Both the position numbers and the translations under genes were made by a program. 64,000 nt of DNA. It comes from Salidesulfovibrio onnuriiensis (GTDB lineage: Bacteria; Desulfobacterota; Desulfovibrionia; Desulfovibrionales; Desulfovibrionaceae). Under the pieces are notes generated by a model. That model was not told where the DNA came from and did no database searches. It was given only the letters and a program-made list of their open reading frames with translations. This document shows, in pieces, positions 36,776 through 50,930 of the stretch. Every line of letters starts with the position of its first letter. Positions within the stretch are counted from its first letter, which is position 1. Location: assembly GCF_008001235.1 (NCBI RefSeq), contig NZ_CP040751.1, positions 1,471,001-1,535,000 on the forward strand. Reading direction: 5' to 3'.

Positions 36776-39433
36776 TTAATGCGCGTCCGCCCAGGTGCGT
36801 CCCGTTCCCAGGTCGACCTTGAGGGGCACGTCCAGGGTGACGACATCCTGCATGAGGCTCTTGAGCCTGCGGGCCGCGGCCTCCACCTTCTGCACCGGTG
36901 CCTCGATGAGCAGTTCGTCGTGCACCTGGAGGATGAGCCGGGAGCCCAGGCTGCGGAGTTCCGCATCGTCGTGCACCCGGATCATGGCCATTTTGATGAT
37001 GTCCGCAGCCGAGCCCTGGATGACCGTGTTGATGGCCTGCCTGCGGGCCTGGGAAATCACCTGGTTGTTGCGCGAATGCAGGTCGGGCAGCAGGCGGCGG
37101 CGTCCGGCCAGGGTGGTCACGTAGCCCTGTCGGGTGGCGTCCTCCACCACGGTGTCGTAGAAGGCCTTGAGCGTGCCCAGCTTTTCGAAGTAGCGCTCGA
37201 TGAATTCCTTGGCCTGATTCATGGTGATCTTGAGCTCGCGGGCCAGTTTCTGGGGACCCATGCCGTAGATGAGGCCGAAGTTGATGGTCTTGGCGTCGCG
37301 GCGTTCGTCCGGGGTGATGTCCGCCGGGTCCTTGTCGTTCAGGAGCGCTGCCGTGCGCGAGTGGATGTCCTCGTTGTTGCGGAACGCGGCCAGCAGTTCC
37401 GGGTCCCTGGAGCAGTGGGCCAGCACGCGCAGTTCGATCTGCGAATAGTCGGCCGCGGCCAGGAGCATGTTGGGCCCCGATGTGAAGCAGGCGCGCATGC
37501 GCTTGCCCTGCGGCCCCCGGATGGGGATGTTTTGCAGGTTGGGCTGCGAGCTGGAAAGGCGGCCCGTGGCCGTTGCCAGCTGGTTGAAATGGGTGTGGAT
37601 GCGCCCGTTGGGACCGGCCAGCTTGGGCAGCGGCTCCAGGTAGGTGGAGCGCAGCTTTTCCAGCATGCGGTATTCCAGGATCTGTTCCACGATCTCGTGC
37701 TGATCCCGGATTTTCTCCAGCACCTGGTTGGCCGTGGAAAGCTGGCCGCCCGCGGTCTTGCCGCCCGGCTTGAGGTCCAGCTTGTCGAACAGGATATGGG
37801 CCATCTGCTGGCTGGAGCGGATGTTGAAGGGCTCGCCCGCCAGCTGGACAATGGAGCGGGTCAGGCCGTGCAGCTGTTCGCTGACCTCGCCCAGGAACTT
37901 GGTGAAGGCCACGTCGTTGATCTGGATGCCCGCCTCCTCCATGCCCACGAGCACCGGGATGAGCGGCTGTTCCAGGTCGCGCATGAGGGTGGTCAGGTGC
38001 GCGCCCTCAACCTGGGTGGTGACGCCCTCCATGTAGGCCAGGGCGGCCAGGCCCTGGGCCTGGGGATGCAGCCCCTCCGAGACCTGTGCGAAATGCGGCT
38101 TGCCGTCCTGGTAGAGGGACTGGCGCAGGCGTTCCCACTGGTAGTTGCGCTCCTCCGGGTCCAGCAGGTAGGCGGCCAGGCTGAGGTCGAACCAGCGGGA
38201 GGTCTTGACGTTGAGCCAGGCCACGTTGTCGCGCAGCAGGTCCTGCACGCTGGGCGTGGCCACGGTGGCCGCCTTGGCCAGTGCCAGGGAAAGCTCGTCG
38301 GCGCTTCCGGTGAAGCGGTATTCCCTGTCGTCAAGGCCGAGCATGAAGCCGCCCTGCACCTGCACCAGGCCGATGGTTTTGCCGGAGAGCGCGGGCAGGT
38401 CAGGGATTTCGGAAACCATGGTCACGTCCAGGGGCTCCGAGGCGGCCGGGGCCACCACGCCCATGTCGAAAAGCGTGCCCTGCATGGGGCCGCCCGCCTT
38501 GGATTTTTCCGGAGCGGCCGGGGCGGCGGGAGCCTGGGGCCTGGGCGCATAGCCCTCGGGTCGGGGCAGGATGCGGGCCAGGCCGCGCAGCTCGTAGGTC
38601 TGCAGGAAGTCGTGCAGCCCGGAGTGGTCTATCGCCTGCAACTCGAAATCGGAGATGGGCTGGTCGCAGCAGTCCAGTTTCATGCGCGTGAGCTCGCGGT
38701 AGAGGAAGATGTTCTCCAGCTCGGGCTCCACCTTGGCGCGCAGCTTTTCCGGCAGCTTGTCGCAGTTGTCGCGGATGTCCTCCAGGGTGGGGTAGTCGGC
38801 CATGATCTTCTTGGCCGTGACCGGGCCCACCTTGGGAATGCCGGGGATGTTGTCGGCCGAGTCGCCGATGACCGCCTGGAAGTCGGGCCAGTACGTCGGG
38901 GGCATGCCTTCCTCTTCCATGAAGCTTTCCAGGGAAATGAGTTTTTCCTGGCGGCCCGCCTGGTTGAGCATGTAGACGTTCTCGTCCAGGCACTGCTTGA
39001 GGTCCTTGTCCGAGGCCAGGATGACCACGGGCCGTTCGCTCTTGTACTTGTGGGCCAGGGAGGCGATGCAGTCGTCGGCCTCCACGCCGTTGGAAACCAC
39101 CAGCTTCATGCCCAGGAGCTGTACGGCTTCGCGCACGGGCTCGATCTGCTGGGCCAGGGGCTCGGGCATGGCCGGGCGGTGCGCCTTGTAGGCCTCGAAC
39201 ATCTTGTGCCGGAAGGTCGGCGGCCTGCCGTCCATGAAAAAGCCCACGTACTGCGGGTTCTCATCCTTGATCAGCTTGAGCAGCGACCGGATGGTGGTGT
39301 TGATGGCGTTGGTCGGGAACCCGTCCGAGCGTTTCAGGTCGGCGCGAGCATAGAAGGCGCGGTAAAAGAGCGCCGTGCCGTCGATAAGGAAAATGGGGGC
39401 CTTGTCGAGATGGAGATGATCCTTGAGAGCCAT
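36776..39433 (-). CDS. polA: DNA polymerase I
   Basis: An 885-residue family A polymerase. Residues 1-300 form the 5'-3' exonuclease (FLIDGTALFYRAF, EADDCIASLAH, GDSADNIPGIPKVG). The C-terminal polymerase has motif A (ADYSQIELRVLAH), motif B (RDAKTINFGLIYGMG) and motif C (LQVHDELLIEAP). In the middle domain the expected Asp-x-Glu of the 3'-5' exonuclease is not seen: the strand reads TIGLVQVQGG. Proofreading is therefore probably absent, as in Taq-type enzymes. It fills gaps in repair and Okazaki fragment maturation. Confidence 0.96.
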   Translation of the reverse strand: MALKDHLHLDKAPIFLIDGTALFYRAFYARADLKRSDGFPTNAINTTIRSLLKLIKDENPQYVGFFMDGRPPTFRHKMFEAYKAHRPAMPEPLAQQIEPVREAVQLLGMKLVVSNGVEADDCIASLAHKYKSERPVVILASDKDLKQCLDENVYMLNQAGRQEKLISLESFMEEEGMPPTYWPDFQAVIGDSADNIPGIPKVGPVTAKKIMADYPTLEDIRDNCDKLPEKLRAKVEPELENIFLYRELTRMKLDCCDQPISDFELQAIDHSGLHDFLQTYELRGLARILPRPEGYAPRPQAPAAPAAPEKSKAGGPMQGTLFDMGVVAPAASEPLDVTMVSEIPDLPALSGKTIGLVQVQGGFMLGLDDREYRFTGSADELSLALAKAATVATPSVQDLLRDNVAWLNVKTSRWFDLSLAAYLLDPEERNYQWERLRQSLYQDGKPHFAQVSEGLHPQAQGLAALAYMEGVTTQVEGAHLTTLMRDLEQPLIPVLVGMEEAGIQINDVAFTKFLGEVSEQLHGLTRSIVQLAGEPFNIRSSQQMAHILFDKLDLKPGGKTAGGQLSTANQVLEKIRDQHEIVEQILEYRMLEKLRSTYLEPLPKLAGPNGRIHTHFNQLATATGRLSSSQPNLQNIPIRGPQGKRMRACFTSGPNMLLAAADYSQIELRVLAHCSRDPELLAAFRNNEDIHSRTAALLNDKDPADITPDERRDAKTINFGLIYGMGPQKLARELKITMNQAKEFIERYFEKLGTLKAFYDTVVEDATRQGYVTTLAGRRRLLPDLHSRNNQVISQARRQAINTVIQGSAADIIKMAMIRVHDDAELRSLGSRLILQVHDELLIEAPVQKVEAAARRLKSLMQDVVTLDVPLKVDLGTGRTWADAH

Positions 39434-39468
39434 GTGAATTGGGTGGCTGTAGCCGGATCAGGACCGGG

Positions 39469-40464
39469 TCAGATGCGTTTGATCTTGCCCTTTTGGCCCT
39501 TGCCCAGCTTTTTGAGCATGAAGATCTCCGGATCCTCCTCACCCAGGGCCGCGAGCTCCACCTCGGCCCGGGCAGCGCCCTTGTGGCCGCCCGCGGAACC
39601 GAGATCGCCCAGCAGCGACGCGGCATACTTGCCCATGTCGCGGCGCAGGCCGTCGCCCCGGAAGATGACGACGAGCTTGTCGTCGCACACGCCGGAGACC
39701 ACCAGCCAGGGCACCCCGTGAACGCGGGTGAAGAAGTCGGCCACGATGACCAGGATGTCCGGGTTCTCCACGTTGCCCGCATGGGCGTAGAGTCCTTGTC
39801 CGATACGGCGCAGATTGTAGAAGGCCCGCGAGAAGTAGCGCATCCAGTCCAGGTGGAATTCGCTGTTGCTGATGCGGTTCATGAGCTTCACGTCCGCGAA
39901 CTTGTTCAGCCACTTGAAGCCGGTCACGTCCGGGTCGATGAACTTGCGCTCGAAGCTGCGGGTGTCGCTCTTGATGCCGTAGAGCAGAGCGGTGGCCAGC
40001 AGCTTGGCGGGCCGTATTTTCAGGTTGTAGAGATATTCGGTGAGCATGGTGCAGGTGGAGCCGTACTTGGGACGGATGTCCGTATAGGGGGCTTCGACCG
40101 GCTTGCCCTCCACCAGCGGGTGGTGGTCGATGATCACGTCGAATTCGAAGTCCTCGAACTCGGGATTGTGGTGCGGCTGGGAATCCACCAGCGCGAACTT
40201 GTCGTACTGGGCCACCAGGTTGGGGATGATCTTTTGGGTGGGGATGCGCAGGTAGCGGATCATGGCCAGGTTGTCCGGCCGTTTGATCTCGTTGATCTGC
40301 CCGATGCCCACGCTCGCCACGCGGCGGCTCATGATGCGCCTCAGCGCCAGGGCCGAACCGAGCGCGTCGGGGTCGGCGTTGATGACGATGAGCCAGTTTT
40401 CGTCTTTGTCGAACCGTTCGAGCAGTGCATCCATCTGCTCGTCGAGTTGTTTGAAGATAGCCAT
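39469..40464 (-). CDS. DHH family phosphoesterase
   Basis: A 331-residue protein with NADPDALGSALALRR (metal Asp residues) and the DHHP signature in DVIIDHHPLVEG, followed by TDIRPKYGSTCTMLTEYL. The C-terminal DHHA1-like part includes GDGLRRDMGKYAASLLGDLGSAGGHKGAA. It resembles NrnA-type oligoribonuclease/pAp phosphatases that hydrolyse nanoRNA or cyclic dinucleotide intermediates. It starts 1-2 bases from cobU and ends 36 bases before polA on the same strand. Confidence 0.88.
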   Translation of the reverse strand: MAIFKQLDEQMDALLERFDKDENWLIVINADPDALGSALALRRIMSRRVASVGIGQINEIKRPDNLAMIRYLRIPTQKIIPNLVAQYDKFALVDSQPHHNPEFEDFEFDVIIDHHPLVEGKPVEAPYTDIRPKYGSTCTMLTEYLYNLKIRPAKLLATALLYGIKSDTRSFERKFIDPDVTGFKWLNKFADVKLMNRISNSEFHLDWMRYFSRAFYNLRRIGQGLYAHAGNVENPDILVIVADFFTRVHGVPWLVVSGVCDDKLVVIFRGDGLRRDMGKYAASLLGDLGSAGGHKGAARAEVELAALGEEDPEIFMLKKLGKGQKGKIKRI

Positions 40465-40465
40465 G

Positions 40466-40972
40466 CTATGCCTTCAGTTGTAGCGGCAGCCCCGCAGCCA
40501 CCAGGTAAGCCCTGTCCGCGATTCGCGCACAGGCCTGGTTCAGCGCGCCAAGCCCGCGTATGAAAGCCCGCACCTCGCCCGAAAGGGGCAGGGGCCCGAG
40601 CCCGGTCTCACAGGAGACCAATATGAGGTTCGTTGCTCCCCAACGATCCAGCACTTCTTTAAACTCAAGGATACGTTCCTTTTCGCACCCGGCCTCACGC
40701 ACGGCGAACAGCCAGTAGTCCAGGCTGTCCACCAGCACGCAGGAAAAATCAGCTTTAGCCTTTCTGAGCGTTTGAGGCAAGTCCGTAGAAACTTCCATGA
40801 CCTCTATTCCCGGGCCCCGGGAAATGCGGTGTTCGTGTATCTGGCGGCGGAATTCAAGGTCCCTGGCCTTGCCCGTGGCAATAAACAGGGCCGGTTTCTC
40901 GCTTTTTCGCAGCAAATCGAGGGCAAAGTCGGATTTGCCGGATTTGTTTCCACCAAGCACCAATGTGATCAT
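40466..40972 (-). CDS. cobU: Adenosylcobinamide kinase/guanylyltransferase CobU
   Basis: A 168-residue protein with LVLGGNKSGKSDFAL (P-loop), ATGKARDLEFRRQIHEHRISRG (with the conserved guanylate-binding His), VLVDSLDYWL and VSCETGLGPLP. It phosphorylates adenosylcobinamide and attaches GMP in cobamide nucleotide loop assembly. The ATG overlaps the stop of cbiR as ATGA, so the two are translationally coupled. An alternative in-frame ATG at 40987 lies inside cbiR. Confidence 0.92.
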   Translation of the reverse strand: MITLVLGGNKSGKSDFALDLLRKSEKPALFIATGKARDLEFRRQIHEHRISRGPGIEVMEVSTDLPQTLRKAKADFSCVLVDSLDYWLFAVREAGCEKERILEFKEVLDRWGATNLILVSCETGLGPLPLSGEVRAFIRGLGALNQACARIADRAYLVAAGLPLQLKA

Positions 40973-41769
40973 GTGGATTCCTTCCATTCCTCAAGCCAGT
41001 CGGCCAGGAGCCCGGCCGATTCAAACAGTCCGTCGGCCCGGAACACCTCGATGGTTACCGTGGCGTCGGGCCGCAGCCGCTCGAGCCAGTCCCGCAGCAG
41101 CTTTTGCCCTGCCCCGGAAAGGGCGCGCAGGGATTGGTGCCGCGCGTTTTTGTCCGGGCCGTAGATGTGCAGCATGCCCACCTTCTCCCACAGCCGGTCC
41201 AAGGTCAAGACATGTTCCTGGCTGTATGCCAGCAGGTGGCCGATATCCAGGCACGCCCCGTATCCGGCCTCCAGGGCCCGGGGCCAGACGGCCGCCAGGT
41301 CGCTTTCCTCCACGTTTTCCAGGAGCACCCGGGACGTGTCCACGCCCGCCCGGCCAAAGGCCTCGGCCAGGGGCAGAAGCAGGTCGGCATCCCGCGGGGG
41401 ATGCAGGACATAGGACTTCGGGCGTAAATAGTCAACTTTGGCCACCAGCCCCGCGATCCTGTCGCCGACTTTTTCCACACCCTGTCGCCAGGGCAGGTCC
41501 AGGGGCAGGTGCACGTGCCAGGAGAGTGGCAGTTCAGCCAGGTCCGGAGCCAGGTCCCGCTCCGTGTATGCCAGGCAGGATTCGGTTTCGAAGAGCACCA
41601 TGCCGATCTCGGAGAAATGCGGGGCCAGGAAACGGGCGTTTTCGGTCACCGTGCCCGGAACGGCAAAGGAGGGGGCGGCCACGGAAAAGGGTGCCGAGCG
41701 CAGCCGGGAAAGCGCATTTTTCGTACGCGCGTCAGGCTCCTGACAGGCATGATTTTCCGTGCTTCTCAT
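40969..41769 (-). CDS. cbiR: Cobamide remodelling phosphodiesterase CbiR (TIM barrel)
   Basis: A 266-residue AP-endonuclease-type TIM barrel. Features are an N-terminal PSFAVPGTVTENARFLAPHF segment, FETESCLAYTERDL, WHVHLPLDLPW, VLLENVEESDL, ACLDIGHLLAYSQEH and LHIYGPDKNARHQSL, which supply acidic and His metal ligands. CbiR removes the lower nucleotide of cobamides so they can be rebuilt. Overlap with cobU, which acts on the product, strongly supports remodelling of salvaged corrinoids. Family recall is from memory. Confidence 0.85.
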   Translation of the reverse strand: MRSTENHACQEPDARTKNALSRLRSAPFSVAAPSFAVPGTVTENARFLAPHFSEIGMVLFETESCLAYTERDLAPDLAELPLSWHVHLPLDLPWRQGVEKVGDRIAGLVAKVDYLRPKSYVLHPPRDADLLLPLAEAFGRAGVDTSRVLLENVEESDLAAVWPRALEAGYGACLDIGHLLAYSQEHVLTLDRLWEKVGMLHIYGPDKNARHQSLRALSGAGQKLLRDWLERLRPDATVTIEVFRADGLFESAGLLADWLEEWKEST

Positions 41770-42014: not shown

Positions 42015-42144
42015 TACAGCATCCCGGGACCAATCGAAACGCATACCGGCAGGGCGCGGGAGGTCATCAAGGCCGAGGCGTATGCAATACGCGGGGATTT
42101 GATGAGTTCCCGGCAGCATGACCGGCGAAATGGTTGCAGCGGTC

Positions 42145-45100
42145 CTAATCCAGCAGGCTCATCTGCTTGGCCTTGGTCACCTTGGTGGCCGAGAGCGTCG
42201 AGCGGGTGAGCATGGCCTCGGGAATCTCCCTCAGATATCTGGACTCCGGCAGTTGCAGGGTTTTGCCGTAGAGCTGCCTTTTCTGGGCATGGCTCATGAA
42301 CAGCATCTTGCGGGCCCGGGTCATGCCCACGTACATGAGACGGCGCTCCTCGCCGAAGCGCTGGCCCCGTCCAGGGGTGAGCGTCACCTTGGCCGTGAGC
42401 AGGTCCATGCCTGCAAAGGGCATGATGCCCTCCTCCAGGGCGGGCATGAACACCGCGTCGAATTCCAATCCCTTGGCCGCGTGCAGGGTCATGATCTGCA
42501 CCTTTTCCGCCGAGCGGCTGACCAGCTCCAGCTCGTTCTGCAGGCTGACCCAGTTGAGCAGCCCGGACCAGCCGCCGCGTTCGTCAAAGGCCTTCTTGAG
42601 CTCGCGGAAGGCCCGGCTTTCCCAGAAGAAGGTGTCGAAGGGCGGTATGTTGTTCAGGTAGGCGGACAGGCCTATGGGACCCTTGGCCAGGATGTGTTCC
42701 GGCACCTCCAGCACTTCCTCGCTGCCCACCATGGTCATGCCCAGGAAACTGCCCGCCGCGTTGAGGATCAGATCGCAGCGCGGGTCGTTCCAGAAGGCCT
42801 GGGTTTCGGGGGCGGAAACCGGCACCCCGAATTTGGAAAGCTGTTTCTCGATGGGGCCGATGAGGGCCTTGAAGCGCACCAGCACGGCTATGTCGCCGGG
42901 AGTCATGCTGCCGTGGCCCATGGCGTCGGCCAGACTGTGGCTGGTTGCCCCGAGGAGCCCCTTGATGCGGTCGGCCATCCAGGTGCTCTCCCGGATGGCG
43001 TCCGGGGCCTCGAAAAGATGCAGCACGGCGTCGGTGTCCTTGCGCGCCACCAGGCGCGGGGAGTCCGGGAACAGGCCGTGGGAGGCGTCCAGGATGCGCT
43101 GGCCCGAGCGGTAGTTGTCCTCCAGGGTGATGGTCTCCAGCTTGGGCCAGAATTCCTTGAGCCGCTCGTCCACATCCTCGGTGGCCCCCCGGAAGCCGTA
43201 GATGGCCTGCTTGGGGTCGCCGATGCAGAACACGCCGTACCCCTTTTCCGGTGCCATGCCCTTGATGACCGCCAGCTGCAGCGGGGTCAGGTCCTGCACC
43301 TCGTCCACCAGGATGTTGGTGTAGGGCAGGCGGAAGGTGGGCGCGCCGGTCTGTTCGAGCATGAACTCCAGCAGGTCGGTGTAGTCCAGCAGGTTCCAGT
43401 GGTTCTTCTGGTTGCCGTAATTGATGTGCGCGTCAAAGAGGTCGTCGGGGATGTCCTCCAGCCGTTCGCGCATGAGATTGTATTTGTTCCAGTAGTGGGT
43501 GACGTGCTTTGCGGGCAGGTCCGGGTTGGTCTCGGCAAAGAGCTTCTTGGCCGATTCCTCGGAGATCACCACCGGGGTTTCGCTGTAGGCGTGCTTCCAG
43601 TAGTCGAAGCACAGGGAGTGCAGGGTGCCCGCCTGGGGCAGCTGCGATTCGTCGCCGCGCAGGGCCTTGAGCCGCTCGCGCAGTTCCCCGGCGGCCCGGC
43701 GGGTGAAGGTCAGGCAGAGAATTCGGCGCGGGTGCTCGCCCGCGTCCAGCAGCCGGGTGACCCTTCCCATGAGCGTCTGCGTCTTGCCCGTGCCCGGCCC
43801 GGCCAGCACCAGCACCGGTTCGGGACCGGCGTCGATGGCCGTCTGCTGGGCGGGGTTGAAGGAAACGGGTTTGCCCAGTTCGGGGTCGGCCTTTTTCAGG
43901 GGCGGGCAGGTCAGGGGGCCCGGATCCTTGTCGGCCTGCGGTTTGGCCGGGATGTTGATCAGGGTGCCGCCGTTCTTGATCTCGGCCCGTTCCTGCTCGG
44001 TGAAGACCGAGATGACCCCGTATTCGCCGTCATAGCCCGCCTGGCGGATGACCCTGCCTTCGCGCATGCGCACGAGACCTTCGGCCAAGTGGCAGTTGTG
44101 GCGCTTGAGGTCCTCGGGCGGCACGTGGCGCAGCACGTTCAGCTCGGACCCGAAGTCCTGGAGAAGCTTGAGGTAGAATTCGTGCACCTTCTTGGAACCA
44201 GGCCCCACGCCCAGCACCTCGGAGACGACCTCCTTGAGCGGGATCAGGGACACGAAGCCGGGAGCGCCCGTGGGCTGCTGCGGCTGGTCCCGGTCGGCCA
44301 GGTCCAGGATGCGGGCGTAGACCCCGCGGGTGACGGGTTTGCCGCAGACCGGGCAGATCCCGCCGCGGGCCAGGGTCTCCTGCGGGTCCATGGAAACGCC
44401 GCACTTGCGGTGTCCGTCCATGTGGTACTTGCCCTCTTCGGGGAAGAACTCCACGGTGCCCAGAAATTCGTTGCCCAGGCCCTCGCCCTTGAGCGCCCGG
44501 TAGATGCCCTGGTAGGACATTTCGCCCCGGAAGAAGTTGGCCTCGCGCCCGAGTTTTTCCCCGGAGTGGGCGTCCGAGTTGGAGATGAGCTTGATGCGGT
44601 CCAGCTCGCTCCAGGTCCAGTTCATTTCCGGGTCCGAGGACAGGCCGGTTTCCATGGCGAAGATTTCGCCGCTCAGGTCGCCGAAGCATTCCTTGATGGA
44701 ATCGAAGCCCGACTTGGAGCCGAACAGGGAGAACCACGGGGTCCAGATGTGGGCGGGAATGAGGAATCCCTCGGGGTGGGTGTCCAGCACGATTTCCAGC
44801 AGGTCCCGGCTGTCCAGGCCCAGGATGGGCCTGCCGTCGGAATGCAGGTTGCCGATCCTGTCCAGCTTGGCGTTGAAACGCACCACGGTTTCCAGGTCCG
44901 GCAGGAAAACCAGGTTGTGCACCTTCCGGGTCTTGCCGCCCCGTTTATATATGGAACTGATCTCGGACTGGAGCATGAAACGCACCTTGCCGGAGGGTGT
45001 CTCCTCCATGCCGGGGATCTCGGCCTGCAGCCCGGAATCGTTCTTGAGCATGTACAGGCCGCTGTCTTCGTCCAGCATGAGCTCGTCCTCGATTTCCTCC

Positions 45101-45249
45101 ACCCAGGCGGGGTGGGTGAAATCGCCGGTGCCGAGCACGTTGAGCCCCTTGACGCGGGCCCAGGCTGCGATGTTGCGGATGGTCAGGTTCTTGCTGGTGG
45201 CCCTGGAGAAACGTGAGTGGATGTGCAGATCGGCGGTATAGCGTTCCAT
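42145..45249 (-). CDS. EndoQ-like PHP nuclease fused to UvrD/Rep helicase
   Basis: A 1034-residue fusion. Residues 1-420 resemble PHP-family endonuclease Q: ADLHIHSRFSR, LGTGDFTHP, metal motif SNSDAHSGEK (223-232) and a zinc-finger-like cluster with Cys283 and CPVC at 299-302. Residues 460-1034 form an SF1 helicase: GPGTGKTQTL (Walker A, 484-493), ILVDEVQDLTPLQ (Walker B), EDNYRSGQRIL, MTLHAAKGLEFDAV and LMYVGMTRARK. The C-terminus ends QMSLLD, like a beta-clamp-binding peptide. EndoQ cleaves beside deaminated bases, so this may couple damage nicking to strand unwinding. It is a single gene. Confidence 0.85.
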   Translation of the reverse strand: MERYTADLHIHSRFSRATSKNLTIRNIAAWARVKGLNVLGTGDFTHPAWVEEIEDELMLDEDSGLYMLKNDSGLQAEIPGMEETPSGKVRFMLQSEISSIYKRGGKTRKVHNLVFLPDLETVVRFNAKLDRIGNLHSDGRPILGLDSRDLLEIVLDTHPEGFLIPAHIWTPWFSLFGSKSGFDSIKECFGDLSGEIFAMETGLSSDPEMNWTWSELDRIKLISNSDAHSGEKLGREANFFRGEMSYQGIYRALKGEGLGNEFLGTVEFFPEEGKYHMDGHRKCGVSMDPQETLARGGICPVCGKPVTRGVYARILDLADRDQPQQPTGAPGFVSLIPLKEVVSEVLGVGPGSKKVHEFYLKLLQDFGSELNVLRHVPPEDLKRHNCHLAEGLVRMREGRVIRQAGYDGEYGVISVFTEQERAEIKNGGTLINIPAKPQADKDPGPLTCPPLKKADPELGKPVSFNPAQQTAIDAGPEPVLVLAGPGTGKTQTLMGRVTRLLDAGEHPRRILCLTFTRRAAGELRERLKALRGDESQLPQAGTLHSLCFDYWKHAYSETPVVISEESAKKLFAETNPDLPAKHVTHYWNKYNLMRERLEDIPDDLFDAHINYGNQKNHWNLLDYTDLLEFMLEQTGAPTFRLPYTNILVDEVQDLTPLQLAVIKGMAPEKGYGVFCIGDPKQAIYGFRGATEDVDERLKEFWPKLETITLEDNYRSGQRILDASHGLFPDSPRLVARKDTDAVLHLFEAPDAIRESTWMADRIKGLLGATSHSLADAMGHGSMTPGDIAVLVRFKALIGPIEKQLSKFGVPVSAPETQAFWNDPRCDLILNAAGSFLGMTMVGSEEVLEVPEHILAKGPIGLSAYLNNIPPFDTFFWESRAFRELKKAFDERGGWSGLLNWVSLQNELELVSRSAEKVQIMTLHAAKGLEFDAVFMPALEEGIMPFAGMDLLTAKVTLTPGRGQRFGEERRLMYVGMTRARKMLFMSHAQKRQLYGKTLQLPESRYLREIPEAMLTRSTLSATKVTKAKQMSLLD

Positions 45250-47756: not shown

Positions 47757-50700
47757 ATGGACATCATAAGAACCGCAATAGAAAAGCCCGTCGCAGTGCT
47801 GGTGGGGGTCATCCTCGTGGTGCTCTTCGGGCTCATAGCCCTGTTCGGGCTGCCGTATCAGCTCACGCCCAACGTGACCCAGCCCGAGATCACGGTCTCC
47901 ACCTCCTGGACCGGCGCCTCTCCCTACGAGATCGAGCGCGACGTGGTCGAGGAGCAGGAGGACGTGCTCAAGGGCATCCCGGGCCTCGTGGAGATGGAGA
48001 GCTCCTGCTACAACGGGTTCTCGGAAATCTCCCTGACCTTCAAGGTCGGGACCGATCTCGACGGCGCGTTGCTGCGCGTCTCCAACAAGCTGGACGAGGT
48101 CTCGGACTATCCCGACGATGTGGACAAGCCCGTGGTCGAGGCCGCAGGCGCGTCCACCTCGCCCATCATCTGGATGATTCTCAAGGCCAGGGAAGGCACG
48201 GACATCGACGCCCAGACCTACCGGACCTATTTCGAGAACGAGGTCAAGCAGCACCTGGAGCGCGTTGAAGGCGTTTCAGGCCTGTTCATCGGCGGCGGTG
48301 TGGAAAACGAGATGCACATCGTGGTGGATCCCCGCAAGCTGGCCGCCTACAACCTGACCATTCCCAAGCTCATCGACGTTCTTCAGAACGAGAACATCTC
48401 CATTTCCGCGGGCACCCTCGGCGTGGGGCGGCGCGATTACCGTATCCGCACCCCTGCCGACCTGGACACCCCGGAAAAGATCGAGAACGTGGTCATCTCC
48501 TCCTCGGGCCAGTTCCGCGTCCGCCTCAAGGACGTGGGCGAGGTCCGGATGGGGCACGAGAAGTTCGACGTGGCCATGCTGCACAACAACGAGCCCGGCA
48601 TTGCCGTGGGCGTGAAGCCCGAGCCGGGCGCCAACGTGCTCGACGTCACGGACGCCGTGTTCGAGGCGGTCCAGCGCGTCAACCGCGACGTGCTCGCCGA
48701 GAACGGCGTCTTCCTGGACTGGGTCCATGACCAGCGTTCGTACATCAACGGCGCCATCGACCTGGTGCAGAAGAACATCATCATCGGCGGCCTGCTGGCC
48801 ATCGTGGTGCTCTTCGTGTTCCTGCAGAGCATGAGCGCCACGGTCATCGTGGCCCTGGCCATCCCCATTTCCATCATCGGCTCTTTCGTTATCTTCGGGG
48901 CTGCCGGCCGGACGCTGAACGTCGTGTCCATGGCCGGGATCTCCTTTGCCGTGGGCATGCTGGTGGACAACGCCATCGTGGTGCTGGAGAACATCGACCG
49001 GCACCGGAGCATGGGCAAGCGTTCCTTCCAGGCGGCCTACGAAGGCACCAAGGAAGTCTGGGGCGCGGTGCTGGCCTCCACCCTGACCACCGTGGCCGTG
49101 TTCCTGCCCGTGGTCTTCATGGAGCAGGAGGCCGGGCAGCTGTTCAAGGACATCGCCATCGCGGTCACCTGCGCCATTGTCCTGTCCCTGTTCGTGTCCG
49201 TGCTGGTCATTCCCATGTTCGCGCGCTACCTGTACCGCTTCGCGGAAAAGCGCCACGGCGTTCCCCAGTTGGGCGAAGGCCCGCGCGAGCCCGTGGGCAA
49301 GAAGGTGGCGGGCAAGGTGCTGGAGCCCCTGACCCGGATCGGGGCCAAGTCCTCGGACTGGCTCATGGGCATGCTGCGCCTGTCCCTGCGCGACTGGAAA
49401 ACCCAGGTCATCACCGTGGCGGGGCTCACCGTGGCCTCCATCCTCATGGTGCTGGTCTTCTTCCCCAAGATGGAATACCTGCCCCAGGGCAACCAGAACT
49501 TCCTGATCAACATCCTCATTCCGCCGCCGGGCCTGTCCTATGAAGAACGCTTCGACATCGGCAAGCACGTCTTCGAGGAAGTGGCTCCGTTCATGGGCAA
49601 GGAGGAGGTCAACGGCATACCGGGCGTGGAAAACATGTTCTACGTGTCCGCACCCACCATCAATCTCTTCGGCGCCAGCTCCACCCAGGAACAGCGCGCC
49701 GGTGAGCTGACCCCGGTGTTCAACCGCATCCTGAACACCATTCCGGGCATGTTCGGCGTTTCCATCCAGGCCTCCATCTTCGAGCAGGGCCTGGGCGAGG
49801 GACGCAACATCTCCGTGGACATCAGCGGCGCCAACCTGGAGCAGATCGTTGCCGCGGCCGGAACCATGTTCGGCATGGCCATGCAGCAGATTCCGGGTGC
49901 GCAGGTTCGCCCCGTGCCCTCGCTGGAGCTGCTGTATCCCGAGGTGCGCTTCGAACCCAAGCGCGACCGCGTGCGCGCGGCCGGGCTTTCGGCCCGCGAC
50001 CTGGGCCAGTCCGTGGACGTGATCCTGGGCGGCCGGAAGATCGGGGACTACAAGGCCGAGGGCAAGAAGAAGATCGACATGGTGCTCAAGGCCTCGGATG
50101 AGGATATCACCACGCCCGAGGCCCTGTACTCGTCCCTGGTGGCCACCCCGCAGGGCTGGGCCGTACCGCTTTCCTCCCTGGTGGACATGGAGAGGACCTA
50201 CGGCCTGAACCAGATCCGCCACCTGGAGCGCCGGCGCACCATCACCCTGCAGATCACGCCTCCCACGGACATGCCGCTGCAGCAGGCCATGGAGACCGTG
50301 GAGCAGAACATGATCCCGGCCGTGAAGCAGATGGGTCTGCTGGAGGGCCTGCAGGTGCGTATGTCCGGCGCGGCCGACAAGCTCACCGTGACCCGCGAGG
50401 CCCTGCAGTGGAACTTCCTGCTGGCCGTGATCATCACCTATCTGCTCATGGCCGCCCTGTTCGAGAACTTCCTGTACCCGCTGATCATCCTGTTCACCGT
50501 GCCCCTGGCCGGTGCGGGCGGGTTCCTGGGGCTGAAGCTGGAAAACTGGTTCATCGCCTACCAGCCCATGGACATCCTGACCATGCTCGGGTTCGTCATT
50601 CTCATCGGGGTCGTGGTCAACAACGCCATCCTCATCGTGCACCAGTCCCTGAACAACGTGCGTGAGGGCAGCATGGACTATCGCGAGGCCATCCTGGAGG

Positions 50701-50930
50701 CGACCCGCACCAGGCTGCGTCCCATCTACATGTCGGCCACCACGTCCGTCTTCGGCATGCTGCCGCTGGCCGTGGCACCCGGCCCCGGTTCCGAGCTGTA
50801 TCGCGGCCTGGGCGCGGTGGTGCTCGGCGGGCTGGCCCTGTCCACGGTGTTCACCGTGTTCGTGATCCCGTCCCTGCTGATGTTCTTCATCAAGATGGAA
50901 ACCATCGGCGGCAAGCAGAAAGAGGCGTAA
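47757..50930 (+). CDS. RND efflux pump, inner-membrane transporter
   Basis: A 1057-residue AcrB/HAE1-family pump with twelve expected membrane helices in two repeats, a first helix with IRTAIEKPVAVLVGVILVVL, the periplasmic porter loops and SMAGISFAVGMLVDNAIVVLENI in the proton-relay region (Asp/Asn in helix IV). Length is typical. It exports hydrophobic or toxic compounds by proton-motive force with the adaptor encoded just upstream, under probable MarR control. A long terminator follows. Confidence 0.96.
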   Translation: MDIIRTAIEKPVAVLVGVILVVLFGLIALFGLPYQLTPNVTQPEITVSTSWTGASPYEIERDVVEEQEDVLKGIPGLVEMESSCYNGFSEISLTFKVGTDLDGALLRVSNKLDEVSDYPDDVDKPVVEAAGASTSPIIWMILKAREGTDIDAQTYRTYFENEVKQHLERVEGVSGLFIGGGVENEMHIVVDPRKLAAYNLTIPKLIDVLQNENISISAGTLGVGRRDYRIRTPADLDTPEKIENVVISSSGQFRVRLKDVGEVRMGHEKFDVAMLHNNEPGIAVGVKPEPGANVLDVTDAVFEAVQRVNRDVLAENGVFLDWVHDQRSYINGAIDLVQKNIIIGGLLAIVVLFVFLQSMSATVIVALAIPISIIGSFVIFGAAGRTLNVVSMAGISFAVGMLVDNAIVVLENIDRHRSMGKRSFQAAYEGTKEVWGAVLASTLTTVAVFLPVVFMEQEAGQLFKDIAIAVTCAIVLSLFVSVLVIPMFARYLYRFAEKRHGVPQLGEGPREPVGKKVAGKVLEPLTRIGAKSSDWLMGMLRLSLRDWKTQVITVAGLTVASILMVLVFFPKMEYLPQGNQNFLINILIPPPGLSYEERFDIGKHVFEEVAPFMGKEEVNGIPGVENMFYVSAPTINLFGASSTQEQRAGELTPVFNRILNTIPGMFGVSIQASIFEQGLGEGRNISVDISGANLEQIVAAAGTMFGMAMQQIPGAQVRPVPSLELLYPEVRFEPKRDRVRAAGLSARDLGQSVDVILGGRKIGDYKAEGKKKIDMVLKASDEDITTPEALYSSLVATPQGWAVPLSSLVDMERTYGLNQIRHLERRRTITLQITPPTDMPLQQAMETVEQNMIPAVKQMGLLEGLQVRMSGAADKLTVTREALQWNFLLAVIITYLLMAALFENFLYPLIILFTVPLAGAGGFLGLKLENWFIAYQPMDILTMLGFVILIGVVVNNAILIVHQSLNNVREGSMDYREAILEATRTRLRPIYMSATTSVFGMLPLAVAPGPGSELYRGLGAVVLGGLALSTVFTVFVIPSLLMFFIKMETIGGKQKEA

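What the first reader, a model, noticed from the sequence alone, without database searches (positions are those of the whole stretch)
42145..45249. EndoQ-UvrD fusion with terminal clamp-like motif
A deaminated-base endonuclease-like domain, a zinc cluster and a superfamily 1 helicase lie in one chain, ending QMSLLD, which resembles sliding-clamp peptides. It suggests a one-protein nick-and-unwind repair system tied to the replication clamp. EndoQ is best studied in archaea and a few bacteria; the fused form is little described.
Basis: partly seen in the sequence, partly recalled or inferred. Interest (0 to 1): 0.65.

Follow-up and report, generated by a model that had tools for sequence, protein, structure and literature searches.

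The report
Damaged-base cutter fused to helicase
A bacterial gene joins an enzyme that probably nicks DNA beside chemically damaged bases to a strand-unwinding motor, with a tail that probably docks on the replication clamp; it may stand in for the usual uracil-repair enzymes in this group of bacteria.

Summary
The reading holds. window:42145-45249(-) is one 1034-aa ORF: an EndoQ homologue (residues 6-426, matched to solved PfuEndoQ), a disordered linker, a UvrD-type helicase (463-1022) and the tail QMSLLD. Catalytic residues of both domains are nearly invariant. The tail is not chance: a clamp-type motif ends 33/33 congeneric proteins, 22/59 others in the order, 24/29 fused proteins elsewhere in the phylum, and 0/21 ordinary UvrDs. 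The fusion occurs in all six sampled families of the order, often near DNA polymerase I. Elsewhere in the phylum EndoQ and a related helicase are separate genes or neighbours; in five two-gene pairs both proteins carry a clamp-type tail. That helicase forms a clade apart from UvrD, found here only in EndoQ-bearing genomes. Uracil-DNA glycosylase is undetected in 51/60 class genomes, EndoV in 60/60. Best reading: a clamp-tethered nick-and-unwind enzyme for deaminated bases. Partly in print: clamp-like motifs in bacterial EndoQ (2016) and a helicase step (2015); I found no description of the fusion. Activity and clamp binding are not shown.

The parts
42145..45249 (-). EndoQ-UvrD fusion ORF, 1034 aa, stop codon included
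   Evidence: 92 order-level (own locus included) and 29 other fused ORFs cross the junction without a stop (two of them, L045 and L075, lack their first residues)
43972..45249 (-). EndoQ region, residues 1-426 (PHP nuclease, zinc part, C-terminal part)
   Evidence: phmmer to 5zb8 E 4e-56 and 7k30 E 2e-55; VIA Z 46.4 over 393 residues
44962..44964 (-). Glu96, equivalent of Pfu catalytic Glu76
   Evidence: alignment; role of E76 from PMC8307549 passage
44917..44919 (-). His111, equivalent of Pfu His84
44749..44751 (-). His167, equivalent of Pfu His139
44344..44412 (-). zinc cluster H280-C283-C299-C302
   Evidence: H 146 and each C 147 of 147 rows; the first ligand is Cys in PfuEndoQ
43882..43968 (-). 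interdomain linker, residues 428-456, predicted disordered
   Evidence: pLDDT < 50
42184..43863 (-). UvrD-like SF1 helicase, residues 463-1022
   Evidence: Pfam; VIA Z 41.7 to D. radiodurans UvrD, 41.1 to E. coli UvrD; clade apart from UvrD
43780..43800 (-). Walker A GPGTGKT, residues 484-490
   Evidence: K489/T490 in 121 of 121 fused
43291..43305 (-). Walker B DEVQD, residues 649-653
   Evidence: D649/E650 in 121 of 121 fused
42148..42165 (-). C-terminal QMSLLD, clamp-binding-type motif in a disordered tail
   Evidence: residues 1024-1034 pLDDT < 50
40969..41769 (-). CbiR, cobamide remodelling phosphodiesterase; conserved neighbour
   Evidence: NF041277 184.7 bits over cut-off 105; synteny
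40466..40987 (-). CobU-like kinase/guanylyltransferase; conserved neighbour
   Evidence: PF02283; synteny
39469..40464 (-). DHH-family phosphoesterase; conserved neighbour
   Evidence: PF01368; found in 34 of 38 order-level loci
36776..39433 (-). DNA polymerase I with 5'-3' exonuclease domain; conserved neighbour, candidate gap filler
   Evidence: PF00476, PF02739, PF01367; TIGR00593 over cut-off; found in 24 of 38 order-level loci, several cut short

Best explanation
A one-chain excision-repair enzyme for deaminated bases. The EndoQ part flips out uracil, hypoxanthine, xanthine or an abasic site and nicks the strand on its 5' side, leaving a 3'-OH (inferred from homology and invariant catalytic residues). 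The tethered UvrD-type motor, by family rule moving 3'-to-5' (recalled), loads at that nick, most usefully on the undamaged strand, and peels off the damaged strand as a 5' flap (inferred). The disordered C-terminal tail docks the enzyme on the beta sliding clamp DnaN, which keeps it at replicated DNA and hands the 3'-OH to a polymerase (inferred); DNA polymerase I, encoded nearby in much of the order, fills the gap and trims the flap, then ligase seals (inferred). Shown here: the fusion, intact motifs in both domains, the conserved tail, a partner helicase tied to EndoQ as fusion, neighbouring gene or separate gene, and no detectable UDG (PF03167) or EndoV (PF04493) in this genome.
For: Homology and fold. 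Catalytic residues invariant or nearly so. Matches in 60 of 60 genomes and 120 of 120 class genomes (own genome in both); 121 fused ORFs in 24 family codes plus one named record. EndoQ/helicase neighbours as two genes in five genomes, both partners with clamp-type tails in these five. Lone helicases of EndoQ-bearing genomes end in Qxx[LFM][FL] in 21 of 23, of EndoQ-less genomes in 0 of 10 (Fisher p 7e-7; picked from top hits, not at random); ordinary UvrD 0 of 21. Fused helicases plus 21 of 23 such lone ones form one clade (SH-aLRT 97) with no EndoQ-less genome in it. UDG undetected in 51 of 60 and EndoV in 60 of 60 class genomes, found in 13 and 6 of 14 controls. polA nearby in 24 of 38 order loci. 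Archaeal EndoQ binds and is stimulated by PCNA through a C-terminal box (PMC4858679 passages).
Against: No activity, helicase polarity or DnaN binding was or could be tested. TIGR00375 scores below its cut-off. The window's motif has Leu where the consensus has Phe, and in the order outside the genus only 22 of 59 match strictly (19 of 59 with Qxx[LFM][FL]): many have K/R/H/E for Gln, some have no motif. Two class genomes (G111, G136) keep EndoQ with no helicase in the fetched 9 kb. Half of the lone EndoQs (13 of 26) lack the tail. Two further loci (L108, L176) have EndoQ and helicase frames parted by a stop, and there the EndoQ frame has no motif in either and the helicase frame in one only. 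At least 118 of 125 matching phylum genomes outside the class also have UDG, so replacement of UDG concerns this class only, perhaps one event. Cobalamin genes sit between the fusion and polA.
Confidence: 0.75

Rival explanations
1. The EndoQ part works alone and the helicase serves another role, such as clearing R-loops or restarting forks; fusion merely co-expresses two clamp clients.
For: EndoQ is kept with no helicase nearby in G111 and G136 and as a lone gene in many genomes of the phylum; each partner has its own clamp-type tail in the five two-gene pairs.
Against: The helicase subfamily was seen only in EndoQ-bearing genomes, and fused and separate states alternate (7 changes on the EndoQ tree), as expected of a functional pair.
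Confidence: 0.13
2. An anti-phage defence protein that attacks phage DNA with uracil or other modified bases, like nuclease plus UvrD in Gabija.
For: The helicase matches a GajB profile at 213 bits, close to PcrA at 222 bits; a review passage says bacterial EndoQ may take part in antiviral defence (PMC8307549).
Against: A match in 120 of 120 class genomes and conserved housekeeping neighbours across the order; no plasmid hit at E<=1e-30, helicase part alone in the 30 phage rows listed of 63, no viral contig relative. GajB matches can reflect shared UvrD descent.
Confidence: 0.05
3. The nuclease acts on another lesion or structure in place of deaminated bases (for example oxidised bases) while using the same nick, unwind and clamp logic.
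For: In the passages read only archaeal and Bacillus EndoQs had been assayed; the zinc cluster differs by one ligand.
Against: Pfu G169 and S171, which gate the base pocket (passage), are conserved in 147 and 146 of 147 rows, and UDG and EndoV are undetected in most or all class genomes.
Confidence: 0.07

Closest known systems
Endonuclease Q (PfuEndoQ, TkoEndoQ, B. pumilus EndoQ)
   Same: Whole EndoQ length, catalytic Glu/His set, pocket Gly/Ser, zinc part; clamp-type motif at the C-terminus
   Different: Followed by a helicase; zinc cluster HCCC where PfuEndoQ has CCCC; the clamp motif sits at the end of the helicase and is of the bacterial kind
UvrD / PcrA / Rep helicases
   Same: SF1 motifs and fold, Z about 41 to UvrD-DNA structures
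   Different: Far below the curated UvrD, PcrA and Rep cut-offs; separate clade from UvrDs of the same order; stretch between the two matched helicase parts shorter than in E. coli UvrD; clamp-type tail that 21 of 21 ordinary UvrDs lack
Gabija GajA-GajB
   Same: A nuclease paired with a UvrD-like helicase
   Different: Nuclease is PHP/EndoQ, not OLD/TOPRIM (recalled); present in every class genome sampled, not patchy
EndoQ repair models of Shiraishi 2015 (PMC4357722, passages)
   Same: Nick 5' of the lesion; one route ends with removal by a helicase
   Different: That route needs EndoV, undetected in 60 of 60 class genomes; no helicase is named in the passages read

Membership tests
Endonuclease Q | Sequence and fold similarity over the full EndoQ length | tested here: met
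   E 4e-56 over 6-426; Z 46.4, 393 of 398 residues
Endonuclease Q | Catalytic metal residues (Pfu E76, H84, H139) | tested here: met
   E96, H111, H167; 146, 146 and 147 of 147 rows
Endonuclease Q | Four-cysteine zinc cluster (as in the 2015 description) | tested here: inconclusive
   Three Cys plus His280 in the first place; His can bind zinc, but metal binding is not testable here
Endonuclease Q | TIGR00375 curated score | tested here: not met
   179.3 against 326.6 bits; among 14 controls the model rings in 3 and passes its cut-off in 2. I therefore call it an EndoQ homologue, not a TIGR00375 member
Endonuclease Q | Nicks 5' of U, I, X, AP | not testable with these tools
   needs an assay
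UvrD/PcrA/Rep equivalogs | NCBIfam equivalog score | tested here: not met
   pcrA 222.5 of 911.2; uvrD 209.2 of 1144.45; rep 192.5 of 951.45 bits
SF1 UvrD-like helicase superfamily | Pfam UvrD-helicase and UvrD_C with intact motifs | tested here: met
Bacterial sliding-clamp client | QL[S/D]LF or QxxLF motif in an exposed tail | tested here: inconclusive
   Window has QMSLL-D: position 5 is L, not F (consensus from PMC12309361 passage). In 59 aligned fused proteins Q 47; L 55 or F 4 at position 4; F 36 or L 16 at position 5; tail predicted disordered
Bacterial sliding-clamp client | Binds DnaN | not testable with these tools
   needs a binding assay
Gabija | GajA nuclease (OLD/TOPRIM, recalled) beside GajB | tested here: not met
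   ten neighbouring ORFs scanned with Pfam: PolA, DHH, CobU, GNAT, ComFB, five without a match, one of these CbiR by NCBIfam

The most novel reading that the evidence does not exclude
In Desulfovibrio-type bacteria a single clamp-tethered EndoQ-helicase protein has taken over deaminated-base repair from uracil-DNA glycosylase and EndoV, and its helicase belongs to a dedicated subfamily that, fused or free, only serves EndoQ; this would be the missing helicase of the EndoQ pathway.
Probability: 0.4. Interest if true: 0.75.

Novelty: new variant of a known kind. Interest (0 to 1): 0.6.

Why it matters
EndoQ's downstream steps are not settled: the published models that I saw invoke an unnamed helicase and, in one route, EndoV. 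Here gene fusion, neighbouring genes and shared clamp tails point to a particular helicase subfamily and to the sliding clamp, in bacteria of which some can be grown in the laboratory (recalled). Most of the class also shows no detectable uracil-DNA glycosylase, so it offers a natural test of glycosylase-free repair of deaminated bases.

Tried and rejected
Chance tail: rejected by shuffles (0.09 expected against 33 of 33 in the genus; 0.11 against 24 of 29 outside the order) and by 0 of 21 ordinary UvrDs. The 33 congeners, own locus among them, are not independent; by family label, 20 of 25 (24 codes and one named record, probably of a family already counted) have at least one strict match in the last 14 residues.

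Rows dropped before counting: proteins with identical last 60 residues were counted once; fragments and frames without a stop in the held DNA were left out, among them L166 (cut off inside its motif region), L073 and L074 (fragments ending QMSLLD and QLGLLD), and the helicase frame of L176 (too short, no motif). L108, a stop-interrupted locus, is counted both among the 26 lone EndoQs (no motif) and the 13 lone helicases (motif); L173 and L176 are among the lone EndoQs.

Artefact of a single assembly: rejected by 121 fused ORFs. The open_frame column of the genome search is not proof of fusion: in G309 and G270 it spans a stop between two frames, so I rely on my own translations.

Mobile or viral origin: no plasmid hit at E<=1e-30; phage hits start at query residue 424 or later in the 30 rows listed of 63; viral contigs none. 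The one genome-contig scan used short patterns from the single protein and gave 12 loci, so spread outside the phylum is not mapped; one lone EndoQ from a Patescibacteria record turned up.

'EndoQ-less' means no match at 1e-30 (9 of the 10 genomes; G211 had one match at 5e-31 whose row was not listed, probably its helicase); some of these genomes are incomplete. EndoV as partner: not supported in the class, 0 of 60. Polymerase I proximity: supporting only. Other uracil or hypoxanthine repair enzymes (AlkA, ExoIII-type, Nfo-type) were not searched.

Papers: nine searches; no listed title concerns an EndoQ-helicase fusion, and no passage that I read describes one. Only passages were read, of PMC8307549, PMC11354406, PMC4858679, PMC4357722, PMC3820547, PMC8438529, PMC12309361 and PMC6202378.
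Full report
What is there. The minus strand at 42145-45249 is a single 1034-aa ORF. Residues 6-426 match solved PfuEndoQ at E 4e-56 and residues 463-1022 are a UvrD-type helicase. It aligns to PfuEndoQ with Z 46.4 (393 residues, 2.9 A) and to UvrD-DNA structures with Z about 41. The nearest named relatives are metagenome-assembled Desulfovibrio and Pseudodesulfovibrio.

Are both parts intact? In an alignment of 147 rows (121 fused, own locus L001 among them, and 26 lone EndoQ) the Pfu E76, H84 and H139 equivalents are present in 146, 146 and 147 (a gap row at the first two); the pocket residues G169 and S171 in 147 and 146; the zinc ligands are H280 (146), C283, C299 and C302 (147 each), so the first Cys of PfuEndoQ is His in this group. 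Walker A and B residues are present in 121 of 121 fused proteins and motif VI Arg978 in 120, the other being a gap; a few other motif positions have one or two exceptions (the roles of the Pfu residues come from a passage of PMC8307549).

Is the tail real? Motif Q[LMIV]x[LMIF][FLMI] in the last ten residues: 33 of 33 in the genus (own included), 22 of 59 elsewhere in the order, 24 of 29 fused proteins from other families of the phylum, 9 of 13 lone helicases, 7 of 26 lone EndoQs, 0 of 21 ordinary UvrDs, with shuffle means of 0.05 to 0.26 per group. Many order-level misses are close variants such as KISLLDM, RMTLFS or THLSLF; others have no motif. In the 59-sequence alignment Gln at 1029 occurs in 47 rows and Leu or Phe at 1032 in 59, while no letter exceeds 27 of 59 in any column from 1011 to 1028. 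The published consensus is QL[S/D]LF or QxxLF, with positions 1, 4 and 5 the most important (PMC12309361 passage); the window's QMSLL departs at position 5.

Partner logic. All 60 genomes and all 120 class genomes have a match (own genome in both). Across the phylum 132 of 198 genomes match at 1e-30, one of them (G211) probably through a helicase only. I translated 121 fused ORFs (92 from the order, 29 from elsewhere), 26 lone EndoQs and 13 lone helicases, then 10 more lone helicases from EndoQ-bearing and 10 from EndoQ-less genomes, the last being helicase hits at 1e-25 or better. Seven loci have EndoQ and helicase frames side by side. In five (L148, L153, L175, L204, L205) they are two genes and both members end in QxxL[FL]; in two (L108, L176) the frames are parted by a stop within what looks like a fusion, and the motif is missing from both EndoQ frames and from one helicase frame. 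With the looser pattern Qxx[LFM][FL], 21 of 23 lone helicases of EndoQ-bearing genomes have it and 0 of 10 of EndoQ-less ones (Fisher p 7e-7). Sampling took top hits, so these are not random draws.

Trees. On the EndoQ tree the fused/separate state needs 7 changes if the two stop-parted loci count as fused (121 rows, genus thinned to six plus the window). The helicases form a branch apart from UvrDs of the order (100). With EndoQ-less genomes added, 59 rows (38 fused, a sample of the 121, and 21 lone from EndoQ-bearing genomes) form one clade at SH-aLRT 97; all 10 EndoQ-less rows and the two tail-less rows of family f44 fall outside. These are quick trees without bootstrap.

Surroundings and genome. 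Downstream on the same strand come CbiR, CobU, a DHH phosphoesterase and DNA polymerase I. Of 38 order-level loci searched, 34 show the DHH gene and 24 polA beside the fusion, in five other family codes for DHH; several loci are cut short, some lack CbiR and CobU, and some are second copies of one genome. In 40 phylum-level loci (L140-L179) none of these genes was found; L091-L119 were not searched. The genome has a separate UvrD-type gene whose 789-aa frame ends without a clamp motif. UDG (PF03167) is undetected in the window's genome and in 51 of 60 class genomes (own included) but found in 173 of 198 phylum genomes and 13 of 14 controls; EndoV (PF04493) in 0 of 60 class genomes, 91 of 198 phylum genomes and 6 of 14 controls. 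The nine class genomes with UDG also have the EndoQ match. Outside the class at least 118 of 125 matching genomes have UDG as well (five UDG-negative genomes are not listed).

Mechanism. Shown: architecture, conservation, partner association, neighbours, undetected UDG and EndoV. From passages: EndoQ nicks 5' of Hx, U, Xan and AP; Thermococcus EndoQ needs its C-terminal box for PCNA binding and stimulation. Recalled: UvrD-type motors move 3'-to-5'. Inferred: nick, unwinding of the lesion strand, clamp hand-over, fill-in by DNA polymerase I.

What is known. [quoted passage not shown] the 2015 paper lists Desulfovibrio as having a homologue and draws a helicase removal step after EndoQ plus EndoV; a 2021 review passage also invokes a helicase (PMC8438529). 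A 2013 study found the Pyrococcus protein with PCNA (PMC3820547). None of the passages read describes the helicase fusion, the gene pairs, the helicase subfamily or its own clamp tail. The supplementary figure behind the 2016 remark could not be read, so its authors may have seen the long form.

Verdict. It is a new variant of a known enzyme kind with a testable pathway role, not a new category.

Noticed in passing
42118-45216 (+): A 1032-aa ORF lies open on the opposite strand of the fusion gene; taken as a shadow ORF, since the minus-strand protein has homologues throughout.
   Followed up: no
36776-41769 (-): CbiR, CobU, DHH phosphoesterase and DNA polymerase I follow the fusion and recur in other families of the order; why cobamide genes sit there is unclear.
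   Followed up: partly
L172 (G111) and L173 (G136): Two genomes of one genus keep EndoQ but show no helicase part and none of the usual neighbours within the fetched 9 kb, and the G111 EndoQ match holds a stop.
   Followed up: partly
L108 (G334) and L176 (G270): Otherwise fusion-like proteins with a stop codon between the EndoQ and helicase frames; could be fission, decay or assembly error.
   Followed up: partly
L073 (G015): Fusion gene broken between residues 731 and 733 into two frames in a single-contig genome.
   Followed up: no
44344-44412 (-): The first zinc ligand of EndoQ is His in 146 of 147 rows aligned here but Cys in PfuEndoQ.
   Followed up: partly
47757-50930 (+): RND-type efflux permease gene near the fusion; unrelated.
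   Followed up: no
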